This document shows, one piece after another, positions 3,344 through 24,305 of a DNA stretch of 26,992 bases. The position numbers and the translations under genes were made by a program. The notes beneath the pieces were generated by a model that saw only the letters and a list, made by a program, of their open reading frames with translations, did not search any database and was not told where the DNA came from. Source of the DNA: a virus. The number at the start of each line of letters is the position of its first letter. Position 1 is the first letter of the stretch. The DNA lies in IMG/VR virus record IMGVR_UViG_3300006077_000024, positions 1 through 26,992 of that record. The stretch is one strand, 5' to 3'.

Positions 3344-4025
3344 GCTCTTTAAACCAATCTTGTGTTTCGCTTCTATGTAGGAATTCCAAAGTTCGGGACC
3401 CTTCCTGCCCTACACGCATAGGAACATTCCTTCCATGCATACTATCTAATTTTCCTGCTGAATCATGTGCAGGCTCGTGATTTAATTTCACCTGATGTGA
3501 TGAGCTGTCAATGTCCTTAAACCATTCACCGTTAAACTTAACCCAGTGTGTGCTATCGTTCGCTTCTACAAACTTTATTGGAACTACTTTTCCAGCCTGT
3601 AACATTTCAGGAGGCAAATGATCACCGTAGTTTACTTGGTGCTTTTCCCCTTCTGGACGTATCAAACTAAGTGTCATTAACTTTGTCATGTATCTTAACG
3701 CAATGCCCGTGTCCGTTTGCTTGGAAGTGGTTAAATCTACTAGTTGTTGAATTGCTTTTTCTGCTACGTCGTTTGGAGGTATTTCCATGTCGCGATATGC
3801 AAGTTGTTGCAACCGTGATGTTAGTTTTGTTTGGTTGGGTAAGTGTTTTAACTGTGATAATATGCTATTCCATTTATTCAGCCAATCCTTTGCTCTGTCT
3901 ACTATTCTGGAATCTTGTGCTCCACGTACAATAGCATCGCGCGTGCTCATAGCACTAAGTTTATTACTTAATGTATCAAAGTAAGTATCGGAAACCTCAG
4001 TGATTACAACTTCATTTACTTTCAT
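3336..4025 (-). CDS. Conserved hypothetical protein, 229 aa
   Basis: The ATG at 4023-4025 overlaps the end of the 4012..4260 gene by 14 bases. The protein starts MKVNEVVITE, a leader I associate with several pelagic T4-like phage proteins. It continues as a helical N-terminal half (about residues 10-125) and a more beta-rich C-terminal half with a WVKFNGEWFKDID segment near residue 162-174. No catalytic motif, signal peptide or membrane segment is visible. It is in the middle of an overlapping gene string that may be transcribed from the AATAAATA element at 4290-4297. Function unknown. Confidence 0.7.
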   Translation of the reverse strand: MKVNEVVITEVSDTYFDTLSNKLSAMSTRDAIVRGAQDSRIVDRAKDWLNKWNSILSQLKHLPNQTKLTSRLQQLAYRDMEIPPNDVAEKAIQQLVDLTTSKQTDTGIALRYMTKLMTLSLIRPEGEKHQVNYGDHLPPEMLQAGKVVPIKFVEANDSTHWVKFNGEWFKDIDSSSHQVKLNHEPAHDSAGKLDSMHGRNVPMRVGQEGSRTLEFLHRSETQDWFKEHE

Positions 4026-4260
4026 TGATCTTCTTTAAACTGCGTTGAAATTTACGGCCATCACGTGTTCTAACGGAATTAAGAAACTTTCGTGTTAGAT
4101 TATCCGCTTCCTCGATAGTATATGTATCAGAAATAAGATCTAATAATCTTCCTGTGCTTTCTATTAAGTTGTCGGCACGACTTCTAATGATATGCTTTGT
4201 ATCCTGCGCAATATGTAAATTTTCTAATTCCTCAAGTATGCTTCGTGTCCGTTTCTGCAT
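4012..4260 (-). CDS. Small hypothetical helical protein, 82 aa
   Basis: An ATG at 4258-4260 with CAGGAT upstream as a moderate ribosome binding site opens the frame. The protein looks all-helical, is basic at both ends and acidic in the middle, and lacks Cys and Trp. Spacing of hydrophobic residues fits a short coiled-coil or helical hairpin. It is the first gene after the replicative helicase and begins an overlapping string of four genes down to the LRR gene. Function unknown. Confidence 0.65.
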   Translation of the reverse strand: MQKRTRSILEELENLHIAQDTKHIIRSRADNLIESTGRLLDLISDTYTIEEADNLTRKFLNSVRTRDGRKFQRSLKKINESK

Positions 4261-4289
4261 ATCATATCCTGTTTAATGTACGTGTGTTG

Positions 4290-4297
4290 TATTTATT
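4290..4297 (-). promoter_or_regulatory. Candidate late promoter AATAAATA
   Basis: AATAAATA on the minus strand covers the stop codon of the helicase gene and lies 30 bases before the ATG of the 4012..4260 gene, the same spacing as the clearer late promoters in this window. It could separate late expression of the downstream unknown genes from the replication genes. Confidence 0.4.
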
Positions 4298-5681
4298 TCG
4301 TTTTAATGTTTTGCAAAAGACTTTGTAACTTGGCACTTTTAACTTCACCTGAAACTTTTGGAATACGTTGAACAGGATCAACTACACGTGTGCTTGCGAC
4401 TCCTGGTTTTATTTTATTCATTATTTCGCTTGTCAGGGGTGAATCTGTATCCGGTTCCAATCCTGCATCGGTAATACGCAATGTGTTTAAATCAAACTCT
4501 AATTCAACTTTTTGACCAACACCAGAACTCGAACGAGTTTTCATTAATTGTATTTGGTACTTGCCACGTTCTCGCATTGCACGACTTGTAAAAATACCAA
4601 ATACGTTATCTGCTGTATTAATTTTAGAAATACCGCCGGATATATGACTGTGATCAAATTCAATTTCCTCAACAGCAGATCTGTTTAACTGTGATGCAGT
4701 TACCATAATGATATCTAACTCCTTTGCTAAGTTACGTATTTCTTCCGATACGTACTTGTCCTTAACAAACAAATCACTTGGACTAACCTTTGTACTAACT
4801 GGCATTAATAAATCCAAGTAGTCAATGCACATACAGTCAACTTTAATACTTTCCTGTATCTCCAATTCCTTTACATATGATCGAATATCGTTAACTGTAC
4901 TTTGTGCTGGCATATATTTAATACGCATCTTACCAGATTTCTTTGCCAACATTTTAACTTTCATTTCAACGTTATCAATATCTTTGAAAATTCTACTAGA
5001 CGCGGTATCAGTCAGCATTGCGTCCATTCGCATACTACATAAATCTTCACTTAATTCCAATGTAATAAACACACAGTTCTTTGCGTCTTGAACCCAGTTA
5101 ATCATTAGGTTCTGCATAAACAATGATTTACCCGAACCCGATCCACCTGCAAATATTTGAAGTTCGCCTCTATTGAATCCACCGTACAATTTCTTATCAA
5201 GCGTAGGCCAGCCTGTACTTGTTTGTCCATTGTTATTTTTAATTGATAGTAATCTTGCTTTTGGATCAGCAAAGTAATCCGTTCCCATATCCTTTGTTAA
5301 ACTAATTTGTACTGCGTCCTTAATGAGCTTTTCAACTGGGTCAAAGTCTCCCTTTTCAAGTAAATCTGCACTTTCCAAAATTGCACGTTCAAGTTCTTGT
5401 CTACGCGTGAATCCTTCAAATTCATCCAAGAACCAATCATAGTGACCGTCATTTAATTCAGGTACTGGCTGTAAATTGTTATTAGTTACTGCATTAATTT
5501 GTTCAAGTGTAGGCAACGTACCGTGATCGATTGAATGCTCGCTAATCATAGTAGCGGCTTCTTGCAAGGATGGATCAAAGTTGTCTACATTATAAATATT
5601 TTGTACACGCACAAAACTCTGTGCGTCGTTTAACATCATTTCTAGAAATAACTTCTGAATATCTTTATTGTACTCTTTCAA
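4293..5681 (-). CDS. 41: DnaB-type replicative DNA helicase (T4 gp41-like)
   Basis: Hexameric 5'-3' helicase that unwinds the replication fork and activates the primase. The 462-aa protein has an N-terminal helical domain (about 1-130) and a RecA-like ATPase domain. Walker A is GGSGSGKS at 179-186, Walker B is the hydrophobic strand ending CIDYLDL near 285-291, and a TASQLNR segment at 328-334 fits the DnaB H3/H4 region. T4 gp41 is 475 aa, so the length is right. The start is a TTG at 5679-5681 preceded by GAGAGGAAG, a strong binding site; the next ATG would delete part of the N-terminal domain. It overlaps the primase gene by 17 bases, which agrees with the gp41-gp61 primosome partnership. 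Confidence 0.93.
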   Translation of the reverse strand: MKEYNKDIQKLFLEMMLNDAQSFVRVQNIYNVDNFDPSLQEAATMISEHSIDHGTLPTLEQINAVTNNNLQPVPELNDGHYDWFLDEFEGFTRRQELERAILESADLLEKGDFDPVEKLIKDAVQISLTKDMGTDYFADPKARLLSIKNNNGQTSTGWPTLDKKLYGGFNRGELQIFAGGSGSGKSLFMQNLMINWVQDAKNCVFITLELSEDLCSMRMDAMLTDTASSRIFKDIDNVEMKVKMLAKKSGKMRIKYMPAQSTVNDIRSYVKELEIQESIKVDCMCIDYLDLLMPVSTKVSPSDLFVKDKYVSEEIRNLAKELDIIMVTASQLNRSAVEEIEFDHSHISGGISKINTADNVFGIFTSRAMRERGKYQIQLMKTRSSSGVGQKVELEFDLNTLRITDAGLEPDTDSPLTSEIMNKIKPGVASTRVVDPVQRIPKVSGEVKSAKLQSLLQNIKTK

Positions 5682-6651
5682 TCTTCCTCTCTAATTCTTT
5701 TTTTGCCAATTTAATTTTAATACTACTTGCATTTCTACTTTCCAATATCTTTAACACAGTTGCTATTTTTCCATATGTTATAACCGCATCGTTAACATCT
5801 TTAATATTATCTCCCCAATTAGGAACACTTACATTAAATCCGTTCTCCAATGCATTATCAATTAGTTTTAGTCCTGCCTTATCTTGATCAGGAACAACAA
5901 TAATAGTTCGGTACAATTGTTTCAACTGTTGTGCTTGTTTATTACTTATTTTATTATGGAGTACAGCAATTCCATCTATACTTATGGCATCCAAAATTCC
6001 CTCAGTAACAATAGCAAATTTCCAATTATCCTTCTGTAAATCTAATCCAAACACATACCCAGGCTGTTGTTCGTTTAAGTATTTTGGTATTCTGCCGTCT
6101 AGGAACCTAGATGTGTAGCCAACTATTTTTCCTTTATTTGTGTACGGAATTATTATCCTATTTTTATTACGTGCTTTATCGCTTGGCGTAATCATAAATG
6201 CATATTGATTATATTTCATTGCACGGTTGTTTAAATAATCTACAAATCGTATATCAGATTCTTTAATTAATCTTGCAGTGCTAGGCAAACTAACTTCGTC
6301 GAATTTTATAGTTGATGTGATGGTTTTGTTTCGATCGTCTATAATATCGTTAATACTTTTACTACGCAAACTTTCTAAGTTTAGCCAATCAACGTCAACT
6401 TTGCTTACACCTAACCATCCAAGTAACTTGCGTGCTTTAACTCCAACAGGTTTTCCTAACGTAAATCCTGCAGTAAAATTACAATTAAAACAATGATAGT
6501 GCCAATCATGATCGTTTTCCAATAATACGCCGCCACGTCCACGCTTATCATAGGTCTCGCTATTATGTATGCAACAAACAGCATTAAATGAAATCCATCC
6601 ACTAGAGGATTTTTTGCGTTTAGGTGGCAAGTAAGAGAGTATATCTAGCAT
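5665..6651 (-). CDS. 61: DNA primase (T4 gp61-like), zinc finger plus Toprim
   Basis: Primase that makes RNA primers for lagging-strand synthesis with the gp41 helicase. I choose the ATG at 6649-6651 (328 aa); an in-frame TTG seven codons upstream is possible but less likely. Residues 26-57 form a zinc-binding motif, Cys26/Cys27 with His29, and Cys54 and Cys57. A Toprim core follows, with VTEGILDA near 215-222 (the catalytic Glu) and PDQDKAG at 254-260 (the Asp-x-Asp motif). T4 gp61 has 342 aa. The gene is followed directly by the helicase gene, and upstream lies about 350 bases of non-coding structured DNA. Confidence 0.9.
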   Translation of the reverse strand: MLDILSYLPPKRKKSSSGWISFNAVCCIHNSETYDKRGRGGVLLENDHDWHYHCFNCNFTAGFTLGKPVGVKARKLLGWLGVSKVDVDWLNLESLRSKSINDIIDDRNKTITSTIKFDEVSLPSTARLIKESDIRFVDYLNNRAMKYNQYAFMITPSDKARNKNRIIIPYTNKGKIVGYTSRFLDGRIPKYLNEQQPGYVFGLDLQKDNWKFAIVTEGILDAISIDGIAVLHNKISNKQAQQLKQLYRTIIVVPDQDKAGLKLIDNALENGFNVSVPNWGDNIKDVNDAVITYGKIATVLKILESRNASSIKIKLAKKELERKIERVQ

Positions 6652-7008
6652 GATAATATTATATATTAACAATTATATATACAGACAATTTAGGTTGATC
6701 GTATTGAACAGATAGGTTAGATAGCTCGTTGCGTACACACTCGAGCTAAACGTGCATGATTCGGGAAAGAAAACCGGTTGAAAAACCCTCAGTACTAACA
6801 CAATATTTTTGCATACGGCGTTATGCTACAGCAATGCTTCGCCGCGTTTAACAATTATTCATATAGTTAATCGAGGATAACTTATGTAAATTGCTACGCT
6901 ACTTTGTTTAGGATGACGCAAAGCAACGTCCACTTGTACTAAGACATGACATCCACGTAACGTACAAGTTAATAACACGACAACATGTAACCAACGCGTT
7001 AATGCAAA
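6652..7008. other. Non-coding segment with several inverted repeats; possible origin or structured RNA
   Basis: No convincing gene is present in about 350 bases on either strand. Parts are clearly less AT-rich than the neighbours (the 60 bases from 6721 are about half G+C). Visible inverted repeats: TAGCTCG/CGAGCTA (6722-6728, 6742-6748); GGTT-GAAA-AACC, a GNRA-type tetraloop (6776-6787); both enclosed by GTTAG/CTAAC (6716-6720, 6795-6799), giving a possible three-way junction. GCATA/TATGC lies at 6811-6826 and CGGCG/CGCCG at 6816-6844. GACG/CGTC lies at 6915-6930 and ACTTGTAC/GTACAAGT at 6932-6969. It could hold a replication origin, a small RNA or leader structures. Strand and function are not determined. 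Confidence 0.5.
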
Positions 7009-8547: not shown

Positions 8548-8940
8548 TTACGATACTTGAGGTAGTATATCTATTGTTCCTTGTGTTCCTGATTGTTCAT
8601 CAACATATGCTAATTCTGTTAACGAGTTAAACACACGCTGAATACTATAATTTGCACGTTGTGTTTCGACTGCTGACAAGTCGCTGTTTGTCAACGTTAC
8701 TCTTGCTTTTCCTTTCGATGGAGTTACAATAGTTAATGCCTTACTCATCAATAATGAATTTTCATTGATTAATTTAAACGTTAGTGTTGTGTTTTCTAAA
8801 TTAATAGGTTTTTGATCTTGATCAAGAAATTGAAACTCTAGAACAGTATCTACCCCTTTGACTGCTTTTAGTATTTGTGAGTACACGTAGTTAGTCCTCG
8901 GTAAGTGAACACCAGAAGTAATATTCGGGTTAAAGAACAT
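8548..8940 (-). CDS. Probable virion protein with BppU-like beta-sandwich domain
   Basis: The frame could open at an ATG at 8983-8985, but the minus-strand late-promoter elements at 8987-8998 would place the transcript start at or beyond that codon, so I prefer the second ATG (8938-8940), which gives 130 aa beginning MFFNPNITSG. No clear Shine-Dalgarno is seen at either. The protein reads as one beta-rich domain with the pattern DTVLEFQFLDQDQKPINL, then FKLINEN, then PSKGKARVTLT, and an N-x-R-A-N-Y-S strand. This layout recalls the BppU-type N-terminal domains of baseplate and fibre proteins. I infer a virion protein with moderate confidence. It is divergent from the plus-strand gene at 8996. 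Confidence 0.55.
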   Translation of the reverse strand: MFFNPNITSGVHLPRTNYVYSQILKAVKGVDTVLEFQFLDQDQKPINLENTTLTFKLINENSLLMSKALTIVTPSKGKARVTLTNSDLSAVETQRANYSIQRVFNSLTELAYVDEQSGTQGTIDILPQVS

Positions 8941-8959
8941 TGCTGTGTGTTGCTGGTTA

Positions 8960-8967
8960 TATAAATA
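8960..8967 (+). promoter_or_regulatory. Late promoter TATAAATA for the plus-strand gene
   Basis: A perfect TATAAATA on the plus strand lies 28 bases upstream of the ATG at 8996, the spacing seen at other late promoters here. It sits in the short gap between divergent genes. Confidence 0.6.
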
Positions 8968-8986
8968 AATCTTAGTTGAATACATC

Positions 8987-8998
8987 TATTTATTTATG
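8987..8998 (-). promoter_or_regulatory. Overlapping late-promoter elements AATAAATA and CATAAATA
   Basis: Two overlapping minus-strand octamers, AATAAATA (8987-8994) and CATAAATA (8991-8998), face the 8548..8940 gene. They overlap the start codon of the plus-strand gene at 8996, so the divergent promoters are back to back within about 40 bases. Confidence 0.5.
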
Positions 8999-9373
8999 GA
9001 AAATGAGTTATTTAAGAAAATAGCAGAGAAGTATCCATTCTTGTCAATTGTGATTTGCGCTGGCGAAGAATATATCGGAATCGTTATGAATCAAGATAGC
9101 GTACTGACAACAATCTACAACTTCGGTGATATAAATAATTCAGAGGAGAAAAAGTTATTTTTAGAACTAGGCGAGACATGGTGGTGGGAATCTAATAGGA
9201 GTATACCAATCAACCTATTCATTAAAGACGAATGGGAGATTTTTAAACCATACAGAAGAACATTTAATAATAAAACTCTCCAAATACTCAGCGGCCCGTG
9301 TACAAGTTTGCATAATATTGCCCAAAAACGTTCAAAAAGAAAATCGATTACATTAATTAAAAATATTGATTAA
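8996..9373 (+). CDS. Conserved hypothetical protein, 125 aa; only plus-strand gene
   Basis: The ATG at 8996-8998 opens a 125-codon frame with no minus-strand gene covering it, and a perfect TATAAATA lies upstream. No Shine-Dalgarno is visible, so the start could be weakly translated or rely on AT-rich unstructured RNA. The protein has a helical N-terminus, a WWW cluster near residue 62-64, a SGPCTSLHNIAQKRSKRK segment near 99-116 and a basic end. I recall similar KRSKRKSITL endings in cyanophage hypothetical proteins, but cannot verify it here. It converges with the miniature polymerase-like gene, overlapping it by 17 bases at the 3' ends. Function unknown. Confidence 0.75.
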   Translation: MENELFKKIAEKYPFLSIVICAGEEYIGIVMNQDSVLTTIYNFGDINNSEEKKLFLELGETWWWESNRSIPINLFIKDEWEIFKPYRRTFNNKTLQILSGPCTSLHNIAQKRSKRKSITLIKNID

Positions 9374-9944
9374 TAATATTCATGTGTAGTGCGACAAGCA
9401 TTGCATAACTTAATGAATGTGCTTTCTTGAAATAATACGAACCATCCTCGGGCTTGATCCAAACTGTTTTGGAAAGTTCTTCCCAACTTTGTCCTATTAA
9501 CTGCCGTTTAGCAGGCCTAATCACTGCTAAAAACATAGCCATTCTCTCAATACTATTGGGTTTCATATGAACAACTAAATTATAATTATTTGCAACATGT
9601 ACAACTTTGCTACAGAAATTTTTATCAAGTAATTTTTCCCAAGGGGGTTCTGTCGCTAACAACTCAATGTAGTGTTCATAATCTTTAATGTATTCGTACA
9701 CATTAACGTTTAAAAAATCAATTTTGAAATAGCCACGCTGTTCTGCTTCTTTATAATCTATACTAGCGCAATTATGAATAGGATCAGTAGGAATATCAGT
9801 TACATATACCCCACTATTATGCTGTTTACTTTCTGTATTTGACTCCTGTCTAGCAGGAACATGTTTAATTAACTTTAATATGTGTGTTCTGTCAGCAAAA
9901 TCAATATCAATATCTGCATCGAAAAATGTATCATTTTCGTTCAT
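9357..9944 (-). CDS. Miniature DNA polymerase III alpha-like (C-family) core protein
   Basis: The start is the ATG at 9942-9944, which overlaps the stop of the upstream gene as ATGA; an upstream TTG is unlikely. The 195-aa protein carries, in order, short matches to the palm and fingers of bacterial DnaE/PolC. DADIDIDF (9-16) corresponds to PDFDVDF of E. coli, with D401 and D403; HNSGVYV (42-48) to the HAGGVV segment; FKIDFL (73-78) to KFDFLGL, with D555; IRP (142-144) to the RPGP region; and KKAHSLSYAM (173-182) to KSHAAAYAL. All three catalytic aspartates appear kept (Asp13, Asp15, Asp76), but PHP, thumb, beta-binding and OB domains are absent. Whether it polymerises DNA is unknown. It may be a regulator or a relic. 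The similarity is by eye. Confidence 0.6.
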   Translation of the reverse strand: MNENDTFFDADIDIDFADRTHILKLIKHVPARQESNTESKQHNSGVYVTDIPTDPIHNCASIDYKEAEQRGYFKIDFLNVNVYEYIKDYEHYIELLATEPPWEKLLDKNFCSKVVHVANNYNLVVHMKPNSIERMAMFLAVIRPAKRQLIGQSWEELSKTVWIKPEDGSYYFKKAHSLSYAMLVALHMNIINQYF

Positions 9945-10213
9945 TTGTGATCCATTTTTCCAATAGCGCAAGAAACAAATGATTTGGCTTTTGCTTTGAC
10001 AGAGTTAAGGCCGTGTACTGAATCGGTTTCGGGGTAACCAAGTCCTAATAACACCTGTGCAATCTCCTCTCTTTTAGAGTCGTCAATGTCAATACTGATT
10101 GTGCCTTGTTCGATGTTGACATCAATATTTTCTGTATCAAAAACTTTTGATAGTTTTTTGATAATAGTGCCTGCGCAACCACCACATTTAATGTTTTCAA
10201 CTGTAATATTCAT
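9941..10213 (-). CDS. HMA heavy-metal-binding protein (CopZ-like)
   Basis: The 90-aa protein starts at an ATG at 10211-10213. Residues 1-65 fit a ferredoxin-like HMA fold, with the metal-binding loop IKCGGCAGT giving Cys10 and Cys13 in the CxxC arrangement, then a VNIEQGTISID strand. CopZ-type chaperones bind Cu(I) or similar ions and deliver them to a partner. Here the last 25 residues add a basic tail with one more Cys (residue 82) not found in a minimal HMA domain. Its stop overlaps the ATG of the miniature polymerase-like gene, so the two are co-translated, but the functional link is unclear. Confidence 0.85.
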   Translation of the reverse strand: MNITVENIKCGGCAGTIIKKLSKVFDTENIDVNIEQGTISIDIDDSKREEIAQVLLGLGYPETDSVHGLNSVKAKAKSFVSCAIGKMDHK

Positions 10214-10222
10214 AATTTTTAT

Positions 10223-10921
10223 TTACCATCCAAGATTAGTTAACATTTCTTTAACATACGAAGTTTCGTCGGGGTACTTATCAAACTTATCCTTCCATAT
10301 TTCAGGGTTAATAAAATCCCATATTATTTCTGTTTGTTCGCTTGATATAACTTCAAGAAACTTTATTCCGCTTGTGCAATTAAACAGCACCCATGAACTA
10401 AGTTTACCATTAACAATAGCGTAGCATATTTCATTAGGATTTCCATGGCGTAAGATATCCTTACTATCTACATTGTTTTTATTTGCCCATTTTATGCTAA
10501 ATTCAATTGCACGCGTTAATGCATCAACTGAATTCTCAGTCACTAATAGTTCAGACAAATATTCAGTGTATAGCTTATCACTTGTCCAATAATCAAGTTT
10601 TTTGTTTTTTTTGATTACAAACTCAACAAAACGAGATGGGTTTATTGCTTTGATATCAATGCAGTATCTTCCAAACTTTACAAACGCGATATAGTATGGA
10701 CTTTTAATAAAATCCATCATAGGTTTTAACTTGGTGGTTCTTTGTGTGTACTCAAAGAACTTATTAAACGCACCAAACCCAACTCTTACATCACTATCGT
10801 TTTGGTTATTCCAACGTCGTTTCTTCTCACACATATGCACAAATAGTGTTTTTTCACGCTTGAAGTTTTTGTTACAATATTTACACGTGTATACATTATT
10901 TTTTACCGCAGTCTTTAGCAT
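10223..10921 (-). CDS. Zinc-finger-bearing hypothetical protein, 232 aa
   Basis: The ATG at 10919-10921 has AAGGGAG ten bases upstream, a strong binding site, although it lies inside the preceding gene (26-base overlap). Near the N-terminus the YTCKYCNKNF segment gives a CxxC pair, followed by a His (HMC) at the spacing of a C2H2/C2HC zinc finger, ending with KKRRW, suggesting nucleic-acid binding. The remaining 190 residues are mixed alpha/beta with no recognised motif. It lies between a gp62-like clamp-loader gene and the HMA gene, so a replication or late-transcription accessory role is possible. I do not recognise the family. Confidence 0.7.
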   Translation of the reverse strand: MLKTAVKNNVYTCKYCNKNFKREKTLFVHMCEKKRRWNNQNDSDVRVGFGAFNKFFEYTQRTTKLKPMMDFIKSPYYIAFVKFGRYCIDIKAINPSRFVEFVIKKNKKLDYWTSDKLYTEYLSELLVTENSVDALTRAIEFSIKWANKNNVDSKDILRHGNPNEICYAIVNGKLSSWVLFNCTSGIKFLEVISSEQTEIIWDFINPEIWKDKFDKYPDETSYVKEMLTNLGW

Positions 10922-11363
10922 ACTGTGTTAACTCCCTTTTTGTATTAAGCTGACTCAATAGGACGATATCATCTTCCTTATATGTCGGATACATATCCCG
11001 TAACGTTTTTTTCCGATCAGCTTGTGCTTTGTTTGGGGGAGTTTTCTTCTTTCCTATCCATTTTCTACCAAAATTCCCAAACTTAGGACTACTGGCAACA
11101 ATCGTGAGCCACTGTAATTTTGGATGTTTATGTAAACTAAATAAATGCTTATTTGCGTAATAGTTTGTACTGGCTAGATAATAATGTAATGCTTCGTGGT
11201 CATTAATGTCAACACTAGCACTCCAACGCATAATAACAGGCGCTTTAAATGATTTACGTTCAATTTCACTTAGTTTATCGTATAACGAATAATCCTTTGA
11301 ATCAACTGCAGGTAAAATTTTATTAAATATATCTAACTTGTATGTTTTATTTTTGGTTACCAT
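10896..11363 (-). CDS. 62: Clamp-loader small subunit, gp62-like (divergent)
   Basis: T4 gp62 is the non-ATPase subunit that joins gp44 to load the gp45 sliding clamp. The 155-aa protein starts at an ATG at 11361-11363. The order of features fits the cyanophage-type gp62: a helical N-terminus, a KSFKAPVIMRW segment near 38-48, an NKHLF segment, then HPKLQWLTIVASSPKFG near 77-93 and the basic KWIGKKK turn, and a charged C-terminal helix ending YAKDCGKK. This is by-eye pattern similarity; there are no catalytic residues to check. gp44 and gp45 are not in the window. A different small replication protein remains possible. The ATG overlaps the upstream stop by 7 bases. Confidence 0.5.
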   Translation of the reverse strand: MVTKNKTYKLDIFNKILPAVDSKDYSLYDKLSEIERKSFKAPVIMRWSASVDINDHEALHYYLASTNYYANKHLFSLHKHPKLQWLTIVASSPKFGNFGRKWIGKKKTPPNKAQADRKKTLRDMYPTYKEDDIVLLSQLNTKRELTQYAKDCGKK

Positions 11364-11857
11364 GCTTGTGCGTAATCAACAACCTGTGAATTTCGGGACA
11401 CGTCCTTAATAAAATAAACAACGTCCGGCTTTTCTTTGTTGTTGATTGGAACTGCTAGATATTGCCCGTTTTTTAATCTTGGGTTATACCACTGAACTTC
11501 ATTATATACATCCATAACCTCAACAGGAAGAAAGTTTACCATATAACTACTTAAACTATTAAAAGAAAATGCTTTAAAATTTCTATCATTTATACTAGAT
11601 AAAGGAATCGCCTCCAAATCACCTGTCTCTTCTTCGCCTATCAATAAATGCCAATCAACGGGCATCTTCAGAATGTTTCCACCAATATTCAATACAAGTG
11701 CAGGGGAAGTAAAACTCTCCAGGAATATAAGAGGAAGAAAATAATAATCTACATCCTTTGGATTACTGTTATCAAGAACAGCGAACCTTATGTCGTCTAT
11801 TATTTCGGGAAGTTCGTTTAAATCGTATGCTGTGTTTTCAAGTGTGTGTATTTTCAT
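11357..11857 (-). CDS. Conserved hypothetical protein, 166 aa
   Basis: The start ATG is at 11855-11857. The protein is acidic in the first 40 residues, then has LVLNIGGNILKMPVDWHLLIG near the middle, a GDLEAIPLSSINDR segment near 98-111, and an aromatic-rich end. I recall similar proteins with a MPxDWxLLxG pattern among marine T4-like phages, without an assigned function. There is no membrane segment or catalytic signature. It begins the run of five coupled genes that includes gp62 and the miniature polymerase-like protein. The upstream gap of about 70 bases has no clear late-promoter octamer, so early or middle expression is possible. Confidence 0.7.
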   Translation of the reverse strand: MKIHTLENTAYDLNELPEIIDDIRFAVLDNSNPKDVDYYFLPLIFLESFTSPALVLNIGGNILKMPVDWHLLIGEEETGDLEAIPLSSINDRNFKAFSFNSLSSYMVNFLPVEVMDVYNEVQWYNPRLKNGQYLAVPINNKEKPDVVYFIKDVSRNSQVVDYAQAW

Positions 11858-12687: not shown

Positions 12688-14148
12688 TTACTTCCATTCT
12701 AATTTTTTTACTGTAAATGGATAATTTGCTTCTTTATAGAACTTCTTACGTTTTGTTAAATGGCGTTTAGCAAACTTGCACGTACTTGTAATATCCCAGA
12801 TCTGAACAAAGTCTTTATCTTCTGCTTTACGCACACCACGTCCAATAGATTGGATTACACGAACAAAAGATTTGCCAGGCTCAATGAGCATTAAATTAAA
12901 GATTCTTGGAATGTTAATACCTACTGCCGCGACACCGTACGTTGCTACGATAATTTTATCATCAGTTTCTGAAACTTGATCGTACTGCTCTTTTCGATCT
13001 TTACCTTTAGTTGCGCCACTAACAAACACTGCATTATCTCCTAAACGCGAAACAAGTTCTTTACCCGATGCAACACGGTCAACAAGCACTAGCGTATTGC
13101 CTGTCTTATTTGCATCTACGACTAAATTTGCCAGAACGTCTAAACGATCTGGATTAGTTAATAGATATTTCAATTCGCTTTGATAATTAGCATGTTCGGC
13201 ATGATCAATTATCTGCATTACATTCACATGACAATTCGCAAGTACTCCTTTATCCTGAAGTTCCTTTGCTGACACACGATTAATAACTTCGCCTAAACTA
13301 ACTTGCAACGACTTAAACTCAAAATCTTCTTTAGGTACTGTACCTGTTAATCCCCAACGCAATGGAATTTTTGCCATTGGACCAGTTAATAATGATTTAA
13401 GTGCATCTGCTTTAGCACTATGTACTTCATCAACAATAACACAAACAACGCCTTCTAGGAAATCACCAATAGTAATATCCCCTTTGCCTGCTTTTGTATT
13501 TTTCATTAACGTATTAAGACTTTGCCAAGTACAGATTGTATGTAGTTTTCCTATTTCCTTCCTATCACCAAAGTAAACACCAACATCATGTCCTATGTTA
13601 ATGTAATCTTCTTCAGTCTGTATTACTAATGACTTGTTAGGAACAATGACAATACTTCTACCGTACTTCTCAACACGTTCGCTTAGCGCCGCAGTTACTA
13701 ATGTTTTGCCTGCGCCTGTTGCAATTTCTTGTAAACATTGCGGGTTCTTTAAAAACTCATTTACGATTGTAATTTGATAATCACGCAACACAATTGGATC
13801 GCCTGCTACTGGATGTTTCTCTGGCCATTTAATATATGCAAACGTATTCTCGTCTACTTCGGCTAAATCAAAGTTAGTCTGATAATCACGCCGATCATCC
13901 AATTCAATATCCCATCCTGCATTAATTAATGTTGGAAGAACTTCGGCTAACAAATTTACATATGTGCTACCGCCTAAATTGAAAAATGAAACAGTTCCAT
14001 CCCAACGACCCAATCTATACGCAGGCATAAATCTAGCACTTGGAATATCGTACTTAAACTGTCTTACAAGTTTCTTACGTGTGTCTAAATCTAAATCCTT
14101 AACAGAGCAGTTAACTTCATCTCTTACTACAATTGTTGCTTTTTTCAT
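12688..14148 (-). CDS. uvsW: UvsW-like RNA-DNA and DNA helicase (SF2)
   Basis: UvsW unwinds R-loops and branched DNA and switches T4 from origin-dependent to recombination-dependent replication. The 486-aa protein has a small N-terminal domain (1-110) with a GRWDGTVSFF segment near 47-56. The SF2 core follows, with LRDYQ at 121-125 (Q-motif-like), Walker A ATGAGKT at 143-149, DEVH at 240-243, GLTGT at 266-270 and the motif VI QSIGRGVRK near the end. T4 UvsW has 503 aa. No good Shine-Dalgarno is seen before the ATG at 14146-14148, but a perfect 11-bp stem lies 26 bases upstream in the leader. In T4, early uvsW mRNA is held back by leader structure. Confidence 0.92.
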   Translation of the reverse strand: MKKATIVVRDEVNCSVKDLDLDTRKKLVRQFKYDIPSARFMPAYRLGRWDGTVSFFNLGGSTYVNLLAEVLPTLINAGWDIELDDRRDYQTNFDLAEVDENTFAYIKWPEKHPVAGDPIVLRDYQITIVNEFLKNPQCLQEIATGAGKTLVTAALSERVEKYGRSIVIVPNKSLVIQTEEDYINIGHDVGVYFGDRKEIGKLHTICTWQSLNTLMKNTKAGKGDITIGDFLEGVVCVIVDEVHSAKADALKSLLTGPMAKIPLRWGLTGTVPKEDFEFKSLQVSLGEVINRVSAKELQDKGVLANCHVNVMQIIDHAEHANYQSELKYLLTNPDRLDVLANLVVDANKTGNTLVLVDRVASGKELVSRLGDNAVFVSGATKGKDRKEQYDQVSETDDKIIVATYGVAAVGINIPRIFNLMLIEPGKSFVRVIQSIGRGVRKAEDKDFVQIWDITSTCKFAKRHLTKRKKFYKEANYPFTVKKLEWK

Positions 14149-14311: not shown

Positions 14312-15316
14312 TTAAAAACTATTTTTCATACACGTATTCTTTGCCAAGACTTCCCACCTGCCTTCACTAATTGATCTTAGATCGGCGATCTTTAATGCCA
14401 TCCTTAAACTCATTTCACGTAAGTTATCTTTATTCTCTTCCATAAAATTGATGATTTCTAGTCCCTTTTCGGTATCAATTTTATCATAATCTTTAAATAA
14501 TTCACCTGTGTTTGCAATTTGTTTTACACGAAGTACTTTGTCACGCATCGTATCCAACGTTAAGTCTAAATAATGACATCTACTTTGTAGTGCTTCTAAA
14601 TGATCCTGTAATTTTCGACTGCGGACATGGTTGAATTTTAAATTAGTAATAAAAATTACAGCCCCTTCAAAATCAAACGATACCGGAATTCCTTCTCTTC
14701 GCAACATGTGGCTATCGGAATTCCAAAATAGTCTACGTTTTTTACCACTATCAAGTGCGGCTTTAAGTAAGTTAAGACTTAAATCATCTTGTAGTACCAT
14801 ATCACAGTCGTCAAATACAATTACATTACCTTCACCGGAATGCTTGTATAACGTAGCATACAATCCAAGTGGTGTCATAGCACCTTTAATTACTTCGTAC
14901 TTTGGACTAATACTAGCGATTACGTCAAACATACTCGCCTTTACTAGTTGTTTTTCAACACCGTATGATTTTCCGACACCAGGTGGACCAGAAACAATCA
15001 TTGCTCTGATGTCTGTGGCGATAGTTGCCTTTGTCATTTCATCTAAGATATCGAAACGTTCAGCAATGCGTTCCATTACTTCTTCGTCTGTTTCAGTACT
15101 TGTTGAACGTTGTTCTTTATTTAGGTACGTAACGTCATTAGGCAAAACTCTAATGCGCATAGTCTTTTGTCCTTTTCCAAATTTTTTATTTGGCCGAACT
15201 GTAATGAATGATCCGTTTTTGGTTGTTCGACATTCTCGAACTAAATCAAATGTTTGTTTAATAACCCTTTTGCCACAATACATCCCATTGGCAATTTTAA
15301 CTTTACCCTTTTCCAT
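14312..15316 (-). CDS. AAA+ ATPase
   Basis: The 334-aa protein has an N-terminal basic region of about 100 residues and an AAA+ module. Walker A is GPPGVGKS at 110-117 and Walker B is VIVFDDCD at 165-172. A sensor-1-like strand ending in FITNLKFN comes near 219-226, followed by a QSRC segment where the arginine finger region is expected. The ATG at 15314-15316 has AGGGAG upstream. Similar AAA+ proteins of unknown role are widespread in marine T4-like phages. It differs from gp44, lacking the usual clamp-loader layout. It lies just upstream of uvsW and just downstream of an isolated late gene, with a terminator separating them. Confidence 0.85.
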   Translation of the reverse strand: MEKGKVKIANGMYCGKRVIKQTFDLVRECRTTKNGSFITVRPNKKFGKGQKTMRIRVLPNDVTYLNKEQRSTSTETDEEVMERIAERFDILDEMTKATIATDIRAMIVSGPPGVGKSYGVEKQLVKASMFDVIASISPKYEVIKGAMTPLGLYATLYKHSGEGNVIVFDDCDMVLQDDLSLNLLKAALDSGKKRRLFWNSDSHMLRREGIPVSFDFEGAVIFITNLKFNHVRSRKLQDHLEALQSRCHYLDLTLDTMRDKVLRVKQIANTGELFKDYDKIDTEKGLEIINFMEENKDNLREMSLRMALKIADLRSISEGRWEVLAKNTCMKNSF

Positions 15317-15994: not shown

Positions 15995-16768
15995 TTAAGT
16001 ATCATTTTCTCTTTCTATATCCTCTTCAATACACTGGTCGCCGTACTGTATTTCAATAATTCTAACTGGTTTATCTGTTTCGTTACTTAACCTGTGCCAC
16101 CCACCAACAGGAATAACCAACTGTTCGTACAACTTATAATCGCGTTTTGATAATAGACGAGAATCACTTCCTTCTTCCACTGTTGCAACACCTTCTGAAA
16201 CAAACCAGAGTTCGCTTCTGTGTTGGTGTCGTTGTAAACTTAGACTCTTTCCTGGGTCCACTGTTAGTTCTTTTACTTTATGTGTGATTGTTTCATGAAT
16301 TACCCGGTAATAACCCCAAACTCTTTGTGTGCTCGGAGACATCCATTCTTTTAATATCCACGACGATGAATTCTTTTTATCTTCTCCACCAATACCAAAA
16401 TGGTACTCAACATTTGTCCAACTATTAACGGCTGAGCAACTCATTTCTGGAATATTCTCTTCTGTCCTGTCGCCACCGTTAATAAAATGTATAGTTGCAT
16501 CATAATACATACGTGCTGTCATTGCAATCGCATCACAAGCAGTATCGTCACTATCGTCGAATACTATTACATCACTTACACCGTTGATGTTACGTAGTAT
16601 TTCAACACGTTCTGACAAAGGCATGAACGAACGACCCTTCTTACGTGCTAGCCATTCATCGCTGTTAACACCAACTACGAGTCTGCCGATTTTATGTGCT
16701 TCTTTAAAATAAGCAAGATGACCGCTGTGAATTGGGTCGAATCCTCCAGTAACTAATGCTATATTCAT
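15995..16768 (-). CDS. Cytidylyltransferase-cupin fusion (sugar nucleotide enzyme)
   Basis: I start at the ATG at 16766-16768 (257 aa), one base after the methyltransferase stop; an in-frame TTG 33 bases upstream is inside that gene. Residues 1-125 are a nucleotidyltransferase of the RfaE2/TagD type, with GGFDPIHSGHLAYF at 8-21 (HxGH at 14-17) and GGDRTEEN near 98-105. Residues 155-250 are a cupin like the C-terminal domain of type II phosphomannose isomerases, with RHQHRSELWFV at 180-190 and PVGGWHRL at 220-227 giving likely metal ligands His181, His183, Glu186 and His225. Such enzymes activate or isomerise sugars for glycan synthesis. The substrate is not determined. Neighbours are a methyltransferase and a glycosyltransferase-like gene. 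Confidence 0.8.
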   Translation of the reverse strand: MNIALVTGGFDPIHSGHLAYFKEAHKIGRLVVGVNSDEWLARKKGRSFMPLSERVEILRNINGVSDVIVFDDSDDTACDAIAMTARMYYDATIHFINGGDRTEENIPEMSCSAVNSWTNVEYHFGIGGEDKKNSSSWILKEWMSPSTQRVWGYYRVIHETITHKVKELTVDPGKSLSLQRHQHRSELWFVSEGVATVEEGSDSRLLSKRDYKLYEQLVIPVGGWHRLSNETDKPVRIIEIQYGDQCIEEDIERENDT

Positions 16769-16769
16769 A

Positions 16770-17513
16770 TTATTGTCCGTACCAAATATTGCTATAATCA
16801 AGCCACTTAAGAACCAGATCTTCGCGCTTCATAAAACCATATTTATTAATACTGTCTGCTCCGGTTTCGGGTAACAATCCTTTATCTGCTAACTCGTACC
16901 ATGTAGTATCTTTTGGATCCATAGGCAAGACATCACTTTTGTAAACAACTAGTTTGATCCATTTATCATTGATGTGTTGCTGAAAAAACCCTGATTCACA
17001 ATCAAATCCACTAACCGCTAACATATGAATTAACCCATCTAATGTATAGTTAAAATAATGAAAGTTGGGCTGTGCTAGTGCTAATTTGTTATACTCTAAA
17101 TTAGTCGTACTAGGAACGATTATTACTAACATGCCACTTTCATCTAGTATGTGATACCAATTCTTTAAAGTCTCTACTGGATTTAGTGCATACTGAAAGC
17201 TATCATGACACCAAATAACATCAAACTTTTTATCCATTGGCGTTTCAAAGTCATGTTGATTATACTCGAAGTTATCATGTTTGAGTAGTGCGGTGTTGAA
17301 AACATCAACACCTGTACATTTAATATTCAATGCTATTGCACCATCGTCATCATCTACCTCTTGAGTCGCCCACCATTCCATATCAAATGCTTCTTTCCCA
17401 CAGCCCATATCGCATACACTATCTACACTTTCCATGAAATCAGAATAACTATATAATAAATCCAACGTCTCCAAACTATGCTGGTGACTTTCTATTTCCG
17501 AACTAAAACTCAT
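16770..17513 (-). CDS. Class I SAM-dependent methyltransferase
   Basis: The ATG at 17511-17513 overlaps the upstream stop as ATGA and is the likely start (247 aa); an earlier ATG at 17561 would add a 16-residue extension. Motif I is VCDMGCGKEA at 33-42, the acidic end of strand 2 is GVDVF at 68-72, and motif IV is DVIWCHDSFQY at 98-108. WYHILDESGMLVIIVP near 119-134 is the typical strand 4/5 region. The fold matches methyltransferases of the UbiE/small-molecule type rather than DNA methylases, as no DPPY/NPPY-type motif is present. The substrate could be a sugar intermediate, given the cupin fusion and glycosyltransferase-like neighbours. Confidence 0.82.
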   Translation of the reverse strand: MSFSSEIESHQHSLETLDLLYSYSDFMESVDSVCDMGCGKEAFDMEWWATQEVDDDDGAIALNIKCTGVDVFNTALLKHDNFEYNQHDFETPMDKKFDVIWCHDSFQYALNPVETLKNWYHILDESGMLVIIVPSTTNLEYNKLALAQPNFHYFNYTLDGLIHMLAVSGFDCESGFFQQHINDKWIKLVVYKSDVLPMDPKDTTWYELADKGLLPETGADSINKYGFMKREDLVLKWLDYSNIWYGQ

Positions 17514-20556: not shown

Positions 20557-21678
20557 TTAGTCATTAACTAATTCTTCATCCAAACTTGCATCAATTTCCA
20601 TTGTTTCGACATTTTCAATAGTTGCTGTTTCTACCAATTCAATAACTTCATCGTCTGAACTCATGTCGTTCATTAAAGTATCTAATGCGCCATCAGTATT
20701 CTTTTCCCATGCCTTACGAAACATAAGAATTTCTTCGCCTTCCTCTGCACCTTTAGGAAGATATTTCAAACGGTTTCCTTGCTTTATTAGTAGCCCGTGT
20801 TTCTCTGCCAAGTCAACTAAGCCACTGTATGGATTCATACCAGTTTCATACGGAATCTTAACTTGTACTGCTTCGAATGGCTTAGCATAACGTGTTTTCA
20901 TTACCTTACATGCCGCTCTAATACCTTTAACATCAGTCACTTTGTTGCCATCTGCATCTTCTTTTAGTTTAAGTTTACGCATAGCAACTACAATAGACGA
21001 AGCGTAAATAAAGCCTTGTCCACCGCTAATCTTATCGTCTGGATCAAACATATCCTGACTAGCATACGTGTGATTAGTAGCAATAATACCAACGTTGTAG
21101 GCACCAATCATGTTGACTGTGTTGCGTACTAATGAAGTTAATGCCTTTGGTTTACGTCCTAAGTCACCTTTCATATCACCTGCTTCAAACTGTTTAACGT
21201 CAGTTGGAGTTAATAGCATACCAAGTGAGTCAATGACAAAGACTACTTTAGGGCGTTCTTCTTCTGCCATTGCTTTGTAGTCAATCATAAACGTACTAAT
21301 TGTTTTAGCAACATCATCAATCATACACATACTAAGTTTTAATAACTTACTTGGGTCCGTATCAACACCTAACGCTTGTAACCATGCTTCGTCTAATGCA
21401 TTCTCCGAGTCAATAAGCACAACGAAAATACCTTGATCCTGTGCATTCTTTACTATATTACCAGACGCAAAGTACGATTTGCCTGCCCCGGATTCACCAG
21501 CAAACACTGTTACTTTACCTAACGGAATACCTTTATTAAAATCACCTGATACAAGGTAATTCAATGCATAATTTCCTGTTGAAATCCAATCAGTAGGATC
21601 ATGAAACCCAACTGATAATCCATCAATCGATTTTGTTATACTTTTTCTAAATTTACTTACATCAAATGGCTTTCCCAT
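20557..21678 (-). CDS. uvsX: UvsX RecA-like recombinase
   Basis: UvsX forms filaments on ssDNA and catalyses strand exchange for recombination-dependent replication and repair. The 373-aa protein starts at an ATG at 21676-21678 with AAAGGAG upstream. It has Walker A GESGAGKS at 61-68, a LIDSENALDE strand near 88-97, Walker B VVFVIDSL at 145-152 and the GGQGFIYASS segment near 220-229, where the DNA-binding L2 region is expected. The tail after residue 330 is acidic, as in T4 UvsX (391 aa) and RecA. Upstream, 14 bases away, lies an SGNH-type gene. Confidence 0.95.
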   Translation of the reverse strand: MGKPFDVSKFRKSITKSIDGLSVGFHDPTDWISTGNYALNYLVSGDFNKGIPLGKVTVFAGESGAGKSYFASGNIVKNAQDQGIFVVLIDSENALDEAWLQALGVDTDPSKLLKLSMCMIDDVAKTISTFMIDYKAMAEEERPKVVFVIDSLGMLLTPTDVKQFEAGDMKGDLGRKPKALTSLVRNTVNMIGAYNVGIIATNHTYASQDMFDPDDKISGGQGFIYASSIVVAMRKLKLKEDADGNKVTDVKGIRAACKVMKTRYAKPFEAVQVKIPYETGMNPYSGLVDLAEKHGLLIKQGNRLKYLPKGAEEGEEILMFRKAWEKNTDGALDTLMNDMSSDDEVIELVETATIENVETMEIDASLDEELVND

Positions 21679-22376: not shown

Positions 22377-23343
22377 GCGCCTTCAAAAATTCTAAATATT
22401 TTTTACTAAAATAATGATCATAATTGTATTCGATTGTATCCAATTCCATTAAATATAAATCATTCAAGTCATACGAAGATAATTTGGAGAATTTACTAAT
22501 CATTTCCATTAACCTAACTAACCTTTCTACTGGGTTTTTTATAATATCGAAACTATAATCAAATATTTTATTGTATTTTTTAAATCCAAAATATTTTTCA
22601 ACATGGTTATGCCAACTCGCCTGTCCATAAGTTACAAATAACCCACGCGTAACAACACTATATAAGAACTTTTCAGTTACAAACGGATAATAACTAGTTG
22701 ACATTGATTCACTAACCAAATGAACAAAACTTTCAGTTAATTTATATTCCAAATTGTATATATTTGATGCATGGTCATATTGTACATGCCCGAATGAATA
22801 AACAGTATTTGAGAAAGTTTCATCATTCACAAAAAACTTACTATATAAACGTTGCTGTGATTGGGTCAAATCCAAATTTAATAAATGACCGACTACATCC
22901 TCATCAGTATACTTGAAATTTTTACTGGTATAATTTTCATTAAATAACCCGAAATTATCAATAATAGAAGTTAGTAATTGTCTACCTACATGGTTTGACC
23001 CATTAAAACTGCATAAAAAATTTTTAAAGTTTATCTCTGGATGAATTTTGTAATCATTAAAATGACGGAAATCCATGTTGACTTTCGTATCTCTGGAAAA
23101 TTTTATATCTAAATTTGGATATTTTTTCAGAACCTCATTGTTAAACACATATTCTGTGATTATTTCATTTTCTATCTTTCTAGAATTCAGTGAATCAAGG
23201 AGATAATTTGAATAATCGTTTTTAAATCCACCTAAATGATCCCTTATTATTATTTGTTGGTTAGCAGGGAAATGAAACTCCCCGCTAATCATTGCTTTGT
23301 ACTGATGTGGATCAATTACTGGATACTCATCCCAGTTTGTCAT
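22369..23343 (-). CDS. Glycosyltransferase-like protein with FVTEK motif
   Basis: The 324-aa protein starts at an ATG (23341-23343) overlapping the gp32 stop as ATGA. The C-terminal part has YYPFVTEKFLYSVVTRG near 218-234, followed by a FVTYGQASWH segment. It resembles the FENSxxxDYVTEK donor-binding region of GT10 fucosyltransferases, and is shared in outline with the 17510..18532 protein. The N-terminus is rich in Asn, Phe and Tyr. No signal peptide or membrane segment is seen. Acceptor and sugar are unknown, and the GT call rests mostly on this motif. Coupling to gp32 implies expression with replication proteins. Confidence 0.5.
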   Translation of the reverse strand: MTNWDEYPVIDPHQYKAMISGEFHFPANQQIIIRDHLGGFKNDYSNYLLDSLNSRKIENEIITEYVFNNEVLKKYPNLDIKFSRDTKVNMDFRHFNDYKIHPEINFKNFLCSFNGSNHVGRQLLTSIIDNFGLFNENYTSKNFKYTDEDVVGHLLNLDLTQSQQRLYSKFFVNDETFSNTVYSFGHVQYDHASNIYNLEYKLTESFVHLVSESMSTSYYPFVTEKFLYSVVTRGLFVTYGQASWHNHVEKYFGFKKYNKIFDYSFDIIKNPVERLVRLMEMISKFSKLSSYDLNDLYLMELDTIEYNYDHYFSKKYLEFLKAHE

Positions 23344-24305
23344 GCATTCTGTCTTGCTCTAATTTGTGCAAGAATATCTTCTGCTTTTGAACCATTGGAT
23401 GTAGGGGCTTCATTAGTTTTAACTTCAGTTGCTCCTGTTGGCGTTTCAAACGGCGAACTACCAACATTAGATACATCAGCAATAGGTGTTACTTCAGGAG
23501 TAGTTGCATTGCTTGGTTTATCGACACCCCATGGACGGTAATAGTTACCCCATTTTTCAACGTCATACTGTTGCCCATCAACACTTGCTTCAAACATTTC
23601 ATGAATGATTTTTAATTCGACCTCGTTTGGTTTTGGTGGCAAGAAAGAGTTCAAGTTATTCAAACCAAATGTTTCAATTGCTGTTTGTTCTTGTTCTGTT
23701 ATTGCTGATTCCTTACGTGACCAAGTACTAGTACTGTAATCTGCATATCCGCCTTTACTTGTTTTAGTAATACGAAAATCTAAACCATTACTGTAGTCGG
23801 TTGGTAAATCTTCCATTTCCGGATCCATTAAACTAGCCTTAATGATTGTAAAGATTTGTGGACTAATCATAAACTTTCGAATTGGATTGTCTGGCGCGTT
23901 ATCTTCGTTAAGTGGATCTTGGTGTACAAACCCCTGCATTACCATAGTACGTTTCTTCCAATACTTACGGCCCATATCCTCTAAAGACTTATCTTTAAAC
24001 CACGGACGTACTTCCGCTAAAATTGGACACGCTTCGTTCTCGCCATACATTTCCACACATGGAACCTGTACTACTGTTTCTTTTGCGTCTCCGCCCTTAA
24101 TGCCCGCGAATGGCAAACGAATCATTGCACGTTCTGCCCAAAAGAACGGATTCTCTTGGTTTGCATCTGGAAGGAAACGTAAGATTGCTTGTGAACCCTC
24201 GTCAATTTTCCAATGTGGGTAAGTAAGTCCGCCTGATTGTTGATTATTGTTTGTTTTGTGATCTTGTGCCGCGAGACGGGCACGAATGTCTGCTAATGAA
24301 GCCAT
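23340..24305 (-). CDS. 32: Single-stranded DNA-binding protein gp32
   Basis: gp32 coats ssDNA at the replication fork and in recombination, with UvsX and UvsY as partners. The 321-aa protein has an N-terminal basic segment (LADIRARLAAQ) in place of the T4 LAST motif and an OB-fold core with WAERAMIRLPFAGIKGG near 56-72. The Cys-bearing loop VPCVEMYGENEACPI near 81-95 corresponds to the T4 zinc region with reduced ligands, and DPEMEDLPTDYSNGLDF near 161-177 follows. The C-terminus is Ser/Thr/Pro-rich and ends AEDILAQIRARQ rather than in a strongly acidic tail. Start ATG at 24303-24305 with a strong CAGGAGAAAG site. About 95 bases separate it from a CATAAATA element. Confidence 0.9.
   Translation of the reverse strand: MASLADIRARLAAQDHKTNNNQQSGGLTYPHWKIDEGSQAILRFLPDANQENPFFWAERAMIRLPFAGIKGGDAKETVVQVPCVEMYGENEACPILAEVRPWFKDKSLEDMGRKYWKKRTMVMQGFVHQDPLNEDNAPDNPIRKFMISPQIFTIIKASLMDPEMEDLPTDYSNGLDFRITKTSKGGYADYSTSTWSRKESAITEQEQTAIETFGLNNLNSFLPPKPNEVELKIIHEMFEASVDGQQYDVEKWGNYYRPWGVDKPSNATTPEVTPIADVSNVGSSPFETPTGATEVKTNEAPTSNGSKAEDILAQIRARQNA

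What the first reader, a model, noticed from the sequence alone, without database searches (positions are those of the whole stretch)
9357..9944. A 195-residue protein that looks like a shrunken DNA polymerase III alpha core with all three catalytic aspartates
Seen in sequence: DADIDIDF (9-16), HNSGVYV (42-48), FKIDFL (73-78), an IRP triplet (142-144) and KKAHSLSYAM (173-182), in that order. Established: these match the order of PDFDVDF, HAGGVV, KFDFLGL, RPGP and KSHAAAYAL in bacterial C-family polymerases, where E. coli D401, D403 and D555 are catalytic. Bacterial DnaE is about 1160 aa, so a 195-aa version lacks PHP, thumb, clamp-binding and OB parts. T4-like phages replicate with a B-family polymerase (gp43), so this could be a specialised nucleotidyltransferase, a decoy or regulator of the host replisome, or a relic kept for another task.
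Basis: partly seen in the sequence, partly recalled or inferred. Interest (0 to 1): 0.78.

Follow-up and report, generated by a model that had tools for sequence, protein, structure and literature searches.

The report
Half of a split phage DNA polymerase
This small phage protein is the metal-binding half of a stripped-down bacterial-type DNA polymerase whose other half is made from a separate, distant gene in related large phages; the arrangement was reported by genome comparison in 2021, and what this second polymerase does beside the phage's main one appears still untested.

Summary
Window 9357-9944, minus strand, encodes a 195-aa protein with the stated motifs. It belongs to PHROG phrog_11778 ('DNA polymerase', E 4.8e-61) and is a genuine C-family (Pol III alpha) relative: the AlphaFold model (pLDDT 93) matches only C-family polymerases. 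It starts just before the DxD motif and lacks the GRGS nucleotide-binding part of the palm. Relatives encode that part as a separate ~172-aa protein (phrog_11127) that aligns to E. coli DnaE 320-393 and stops there. All 10 reference phages tested with this half also carry the other half and a family-B polymerase; contigs of 200 kb or more pair the halves in 2 of 2 (C to N) and 7 of 7 (N to C). Catalytic motifs persist across 110 environmental homologues and selection is purifying (dN/dS about 0.09), so it is neither relic nor chance. Best explanation: a two-protein, thumb-less, PHP-less mini Pol III alpha that reconstitutes one nucleotidyltransferase site beside the gp43-type replicase. Iyer et al. 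2021 (PMC7824862) described exactly this split polymerase, so this is a new member of a known kind. The window is a 27-kb fragment; its own N-half was not found in it.

The parts
9357..9944 (-). C-half of split mini DNA polymerase III alpha (195 aa; phrog_11778): D11/D13(/D15) and D76 metal ligands, H42-G45, R143-P144-x-K146, K173-x-x-H176-x3-Y180
   Evidence: ORF; phrog_11778 E 4.8e-61 and phrog_405 (full-length phage Pol III alpha) E 5.5e-4; alignment; AlphaFold pLDDT 93.4, pTM 0.83; Foldseek PDB hits with probability above 0.3 are all C-family polymerases, best named BFVD hits too
9941..10213 (-). 90-aa HMA-domain protein directly upstream, stop/start overlap ATGA with the polymerase gene (probable translational coupling)
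   Evidence: PF00403 E 7.9e-9; overlap from coordinates and sequence
8996..9373 (+). convergent 125-aa conserved neighbour (phrog_11637), 3' ends overlap by 17 bp; a convergent small ORF sits in the same place in 121Q, RaK2, CBB, Atu_ph07 and others
   Evidence: (E 7.3e-35)
10223..10921 (-). conserved upstream neighbour (phrog_11058)
   Evidence: E 5e-58; same slot in 121Q gene 14
10896..11363 (-). conserved upstream neighbour (phrog_11758)
   Evidence: E 7.7e-15, partial; same slot in 121Q gene 13
11357..11857 (-). conserved upstream neighbour (phrog_11279)
   Evidence: E 2e-47; same slot in 121Q gene 12
12688..14148 (-). UvsW-type DEAD/DEAH helicase at the head of the syntenic block
   Evidence: PF04851 E 5.8e-18
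5665..6672 (-). DNA primase (gp61-like) downstream
   Evidence: phrog_47 E 4.7e-38
4293..5681 (-). DnaB-like (gp41) replicative helicase downstream
   Evidence: phrog_19 E 5.2e-66
20557..21678 (-). UvsX-like recombinase
   Evidence: phrog_97 E 1.7e-68
23340..24305 (-). gp32-type single-strand DNA-binding protein
   Evidence: phrog_1192 E 9.4e-62

Best explanation
The protein is the C-terminal half of a split, minimal C-family DNA polymerase. It supplies the beta-strands carrying the metal-binding aspartates (D11, D13, D76; E. coli D401, D403, D555) and a reduced fingers/template-binding part. The partner, a separate ~172-aa protein encoded elsewhere in the phage genome, supplies the other half of the palm with the GRGS nucleotide-binding loop (E. 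coli R362, G363, S364 region). The two would assemble into one nucleotidyltransferase site, without PHP domain, thumb or clamp-binding C-terminus, and copy DNA as an accessory polymerase beside the gp43-type family-B replicase. Its place in the primase/helicase gene block suggests short synthesis at primers or on the lagging strand, or repair. Shown: homology, split point, pairing in complete relatives, conservation of catalytic residues, purifying selection, co-occurrence with a family-B polymerase in relatives. Inferred: physical assembly, polymerase activity and the role at primers. Not shown: that the window's own phage carries the N-half, because the window is only a 27-kb fragment.
For: Family and homology: phrog_11778 E 4.8e-61, phrog_405 E 5.5e-4 for the window protein and 7.1e-7 for the Paride homologue; hhalign to a DnaE profile aligns residues 39-146 with E. 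coli 508-642 (E 5e-4, probability 31); the C-half profile hits DnaE in collinear pieces at DIDIDF, RP and K-HA..Y (E 0.08-0.8). Fold: AlphaFold pLDDT 93.4, pTM 0.83; the 12 best PDB hits are all Pol III alpha, probability 0.38-1.00; the best BFVD hits that carry names are phage DNA polymerases / DnaE. Split: the N-half profile aligns to E. coli DnaE 320-393, E 5e-6, hhalign probability 96.9, and the N-half model hits only C-family polymerases at high probability; N-halves end at or near 'EFLK', while C-halves start just before DIDID. Pairing: 10/10 reference phages, 2/2 contigs of 200 kb or more C to N, 7/7 N to C. Family B: 10/10 reference phages and 8/9 large contigs. Selection: median dN/dS 0.091 for C, 0.119 for N. 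Gene context.
Against: No biochemistry was found in the library. Without thumb and clamp-binding parts, processive synthesis is unlikely. Most of the fingers stretch between RP and K-H (about 114 residues in E. coli, about 28 here) is missing, so dNTP handling must differ. A DnaQ/epsilon-type exonuclease is present in only 10 of the 19 genomes searched beside the window. The N-half was not found in the window, as expected for a fragment when the two genes lie about 11 to over 180 kb apart in relatives.
Confidence: 0.75

Rival explanations
1. The two halves form a complex that uses the polymerase fold for something other than DNA synthesis, such as a scaffold or regulator of the phage or host replisome (including a decoy for host Pol III partners).
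For: The beta-clamp-binding, PHP and thumb parts are gone and much of the fingers is deleted; the phages already have a family-B polymerase.
Against: All metal ligands and the GRGS loop are essentially invariant across 110 C-halves and the N-halves examined; a scaffold or decoy would not need them. The parts of DnaE that bind host clamp, tau or epsilon are absent, so there is little for a decoy to compete with.
Confidence: 0.12
2. The assembled pair is a nucleotidyltransferase that is not a processive templated DNA polymerase, for example end-tailing, gap or abasic-site filling, or nucleotide-signal synthesis in the manner of other Pol-beta-fold enzymes.
For: A minimal Pol-beta-fold core without thumb could act distributively on short gaps (inference); located among recombination and repair genes uvsW, uvsX, gp32.
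Against: The retained motifs (RP, K-HA..Y) are those of the Pol III fingers/template region, and the gene sits in the primase-helicase block.
Confidence: 0.1
3. Decaying relic of a captured host dnaE.
For: Small size; a split gene is what decay might give.
Confidence: 0.01
4. Not a polymerase relative at all; chance resemblance of short motifs.
For: A single-sequence search of PDB finds nothing credible; Pfam and NCBIfam find nothing.
Against: Profile, fold and partner evidence all point to the same family.
Confidence: 0.02

Closest known systems
Split minimal DNA polymerase III alpha of group 2.2 jumbo phages (Iyer et al. 2021, PMC7824862; here matched to PHROGs phrog_11778 + phrog_11127)
   Same: Minimal Pol III alpha split into NTP-binding and metal/template-binding proteins, distant genes, family-B polymerase in the same phages, T4-like replication genes around it; Atu_ph07, which the paper places in group 2.2, carries the homologue.
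   Different: The window's phage is known only from a 27-kb viral contig and its N-half is not in the fragment. The best reference match is about 44% identical over about 90% of the protein; environmental relatives reach 71%. The kind also occurs in a 141-kb phage (Slicko01), below jumbo size.
Bacterial DNA polymerase III alpha (DnaE, E. coli; C family)
   Same: DxD plus D metal site, H..G motif, RP motif, K-H...Y motif; Pol-beta-type palm.
   Different: 195 aa against 1160; no PHP, no N-terminal palm with GRGS, no thumb, most of the fingers and all C-terminal parts missing; two polypeptides.
T4 gp43 (family B) replicase
   Same: A family-B polymerase is present in the same phages.
   Different: Unrelated fold and sequence; not what this ORF encodes.
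Split DnaE of cyanobacteria (intein-linked DnaE-N and DnaE-C; from general knowledge)
   Same: Pol III alpha encoded by two separate genes.
   Different: There the split lies in the fingers and is healed by a trans-splicing intein (general knowledge); here the split is inside the palm, just before DxD, and the short proteins end and begin with no room for an intein.

Membership tests
C-family DNA polymerase (Pol III alpha), catalytic core homology | Three metal-binding aspartates (E. coli D401, D403, D555) | tested here: met
   D11, D13, D76 in register; invariant in 63 sequences; spatial clustering not measured
C-family DNA polymerase (Pol III alpha), catalytic core homology | C-family palm/fingers fold | tested here: met
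   Foldseek: the 12 best PDB hits all Pol III alpha; best named BFVD hits are phage DNA polymerases/DnaE
C-family DNA polymerase (Pol III alpha), catalytic core homology | GRGS nucleotide-binding loop N-terminal to DxD | tested here: not met
   Absent from this protein; present in the separate partner protein of relatives
Full-length bacterial DnaE/PolC | PHP domain, thumb, beta-clamp/OB/tau regions in one chain of about 1000 aa or more | tested here: not met
   195 aa; residues 16-38 replace E. coli 406-508 and 146-173 replace 642-757
Split mini Pol III alpha of jumbo phages (Iyer 2021) | Belongs to the C-terminal protein family | tested here: met
   phrog_11778 E 4.8e-61
Split mini Pol III alpha of jumbo phages (Iyer 2021) | Separate N-terminal protein in the same genome, distant gene | tested here: inconclusive
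   Not in the 27-kb window; present in 10/10 reference relatives and in all tested contigs of 200 kb or more
Split mini Pol III alpha of jumbo phages (Iyer 2021) | Family-B polymerase in the same phage | tested here: inconclusive
   No family-B polymerase turned up among the window ORFs scanned, and the window itself was not searched for PF00136; found in 10/10 reference relatives and 8/9 large contigs
Split mini Pol III alpha of jumbo phages (Iyer 2021) | Conserved neighbourhood in relatives: UvsW - phrog_11279 - phrog_11758 - phrog_11058 - small ORF - C-half - convergent phrog_11637 - primase - gp41 (my criterion, not the paper's) | tested here: met
Split mini Pol III alpha of jumbo phages (Iyer 2021) | DNA polymerase activity of the reconstituted pair | not testable with these tools
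   No biochemical report found

The most novel reading that the evidence does not exclude
The pair is a dedicated second replicative polymerase, active only when the two halves meet, that extends primase products before hand-off to the family-B replicase. That would be a two-polymerase phage replisome with a bacterial-type primer extender, possibly a surviving minimal form of the Pol III catalytic core.
Probability: 0.15. Interest if true: 0.75.

Novelty: new member of a known kind. Interest (0 to 1): 0.45.

Why it matters
It would show what the bacterial replicase core can do without PHP, thumb and clamp-binding parts, and it bears on the proposal (Iyer et al. 2021) that such phages keep an ancient minimal form. 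Cultured phages that carry both halves, such as 121Q, RaK2 and Paride, make this directly testable.

Tried and rejected
Single-sequence PDB search: only a spurious fatty acid synthase hit, E 0.14. Pfam and NCBIfam: no family for the window protein; Pfam finger domain only below cut-off in relatives. Looked for the N-half in the window with one sequence and with a 58-row profile: none. Tested whether a DnaQ/epsilon exonuclease always accompanies the pair: no, 10 of 19. The bacterial genome scan gave 12 loci, 11 titled as MAG contigs and one as an uncultured-bacterium bin, which I take for mis-binned phage (inferred from titles and phage-like context, not tested locus by locus). A first dN/dS script failed on an aligner setting and was rerun. 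Relic, decoy and chance rejected as stated under rivals. No report of the split polymerase other than Iyer 2021 was recognised in the library searches; most hits of those searches were not read in full.

Full report
The observation. Window 9357-9944 encodes, on the minus strand, a 195-residue protein starting at ATG 9944. The catalytic numbering needs one correction. E. coli DnaE reads P400-D401-F-D403-V-D405-F (positions), so in the window's DADIDIDF the equivalents of D401 and D403 are Asp11 and Asp13; Asp15 is D405 and Asp76 is D555.

What family it is. hmmscan against PHROGs gives phrog_11778, 'DNA polymerase', E 4.8e-61, and the full-length phage Pol III alpha family phrog_405 at 5.5e-4; a homologue from phage Paride hits phrog_405 at 7.1e-7. 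Pfam, NCBIfam and a single-sequence PDB search are silent or spurious. A profile of 24 homologues hits DnaE structures only weakly (E 0.08-0.8) but in collinear pieces. Profile-profile comparison with a small (3-sequence) DnaE alignment places residues 39-146 on E. coli 508-642 (E 5e-4, probability 31). The AlphaFold model is confident (pLDDT 93.4, pTM 0.83). Its 12 best PDB hits are all Pol III alpha, and its best BFVD hits, where they bear names, are phage DNA polymerases or DnaE. The homology therefore rests on family profile and fold together.

It is half an enzyme. All homologues examined begin just before DIDID, so the GRGS loop and the first part of the palm are missing. A paper on phage CBB mentions a second, truncated Pol III alpha-like protein of 172 aa, CBB_328 (PMC5259590), and one on Atu_ph07 mentions gp316 (PMC6102473). 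CBB_328 ends in WGLGRGSSVSSYCLYLIGLHLVDSIKYELDVNEFLKW. The N-half profile aligns to E. coli DnaE 320-393 with E 5e-6 and by hhalign with probability 96.9. The AlphaFold model of an environmental N-half (pLDDT 91.1, pTM 0.67) also matches only C-family polymerases at high probability. The N-half thus ends near E. coli residue 394 and the C-half starts near 400: the gene is cut inside the palm.

Pairing. All 10 reference phages tested with the C-half have the N-half. In IMG/VR the two contigs of 200 kb or more with a C-half have an N-half, and the seven such contigs with an N-half have a C-half; shorter contigs mostly hold only one, as expected when the genes lie about 11 to over 180 kb apart. 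All 10 reference phages also carry a family-B polymerase, as do 8 of 9 large contigs. The window itself holds no detectable N-half, so for this particular phage the partner is inferred.

What is missing relative to DnaE. Between DIDIDF and the H..G motif the window protein has about 22-25 residues against about 100 in E. coli, which removes the thumb (domain limits from general knowledge of the E. coli structure). Between RP and the K-H motif it has about 28 against about 114, which removes much of the fingers. The PHP domain and everything beyond the K-H...Y helix are absent.

Selection and conservation. In 110 environmental C-halves D-x-D-x-D and RP-x-K are present in all and the other patterns in 109 each, with conservative exceptions. 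Median dN/dS is 0.091 for the C-half and 0.119 for the N-half among pairs with unsaturated synonymous sites. This argues strongly against a relic.

Context. The gene order UvsW, phrog_11279, phrog_11758, phrog_11058, a small ORF, C-half, a convergent phrog_11637, then primase and gp41 helicase is shared with 121Q and recognisable in most of the other reference phages fetched. The window also holds UvsX, a gp32-type SSB and PhoH.

How it probably works. The two proteins are expected to assemble into one Pol-beta-type nucleotidyltransferase site: nucleotide-binding loop from one, metals and template contacts from the other. With no thumb or clamp-binding region it should be distributive. The primase-helicase neighbourhood suggests primer extension or lagging-strand work, or repair; this last step is inference only.

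Prior knowledge. Iyer et al. 2021 (PMC7824862; [quoted passage not shown] The window protein is a further member of that kind, from a viral contig. What the present work adds is the residue-level split point, the pairing counts, the selection estimate, fold models of both halves, and the spread into a 141-kb phage and many environmental viral contigs. I recognised no experimental study in the library, where most hits were not read in full.

Noticed in passing
window 9941-10213 (-): A 90-aa HMA (heavy-metal-associated) domain protein sits directly upstream of the polymerase half with an ATGA stop/start overlap; 121Q has a different small protein (phrog_14909) in that slot.
   Followed up: partly
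window 15995-20236 (-): Between UvsX and UvsW lies a small cassette: radical-SAM protein, methyltransferase, and a fused cytidylyltransferase plus mannose-6-phosphate isomerase C-terminal/cupin protein, perhaps for sugar or cell-surface modification.
   Followed up: partly
window 14312-15316 (-): 334-aa protein of phrog_1250 (unknown function, E 3.1e-85) with a weak clamp-loader match (phrog_168, 5e-5) and a weak AAA match.
   Followed up: no
window 8548-8985 (-): 145-aa protein with a BppU N-terminal domain (baseplate upper protein, E 7e-6) inside the replication gene block.
   Followed up: no
L240:2520-4873 (Alicyclobacillus phage KKP_3916): A phage DnaE reading frame ends shortly after the GRGS motif and before DxD, followed by an ORF that looks like a LAGLIDADG-type homing endonuclease; a possible model of how an intron insertion could lead to a palm-split polymerase.
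   Followed up: partly
L237 (Bacillus phage KLEB27-3), L241 (Thomasclavelia phage TR-TP2): Phage Pol III alpha genes annotated in two pieces with an HNH endonuclease gene between them.
   Followed up: no
L044:1-2847 (Atu_ph07 gp276/gp277); W07 (Slicko01) 3529-5033: The family-B polymerase also appears to be split into two reading frames in some of these phages.
   Followed up: no
L242-L252 (genome contigs): Relatives of the C-half found in bacterial and archaeal MAGs, including Pelagibacter and Neomarinimicrobiota bins; these look like mis-binned phage contigs.
   Followed up: partly
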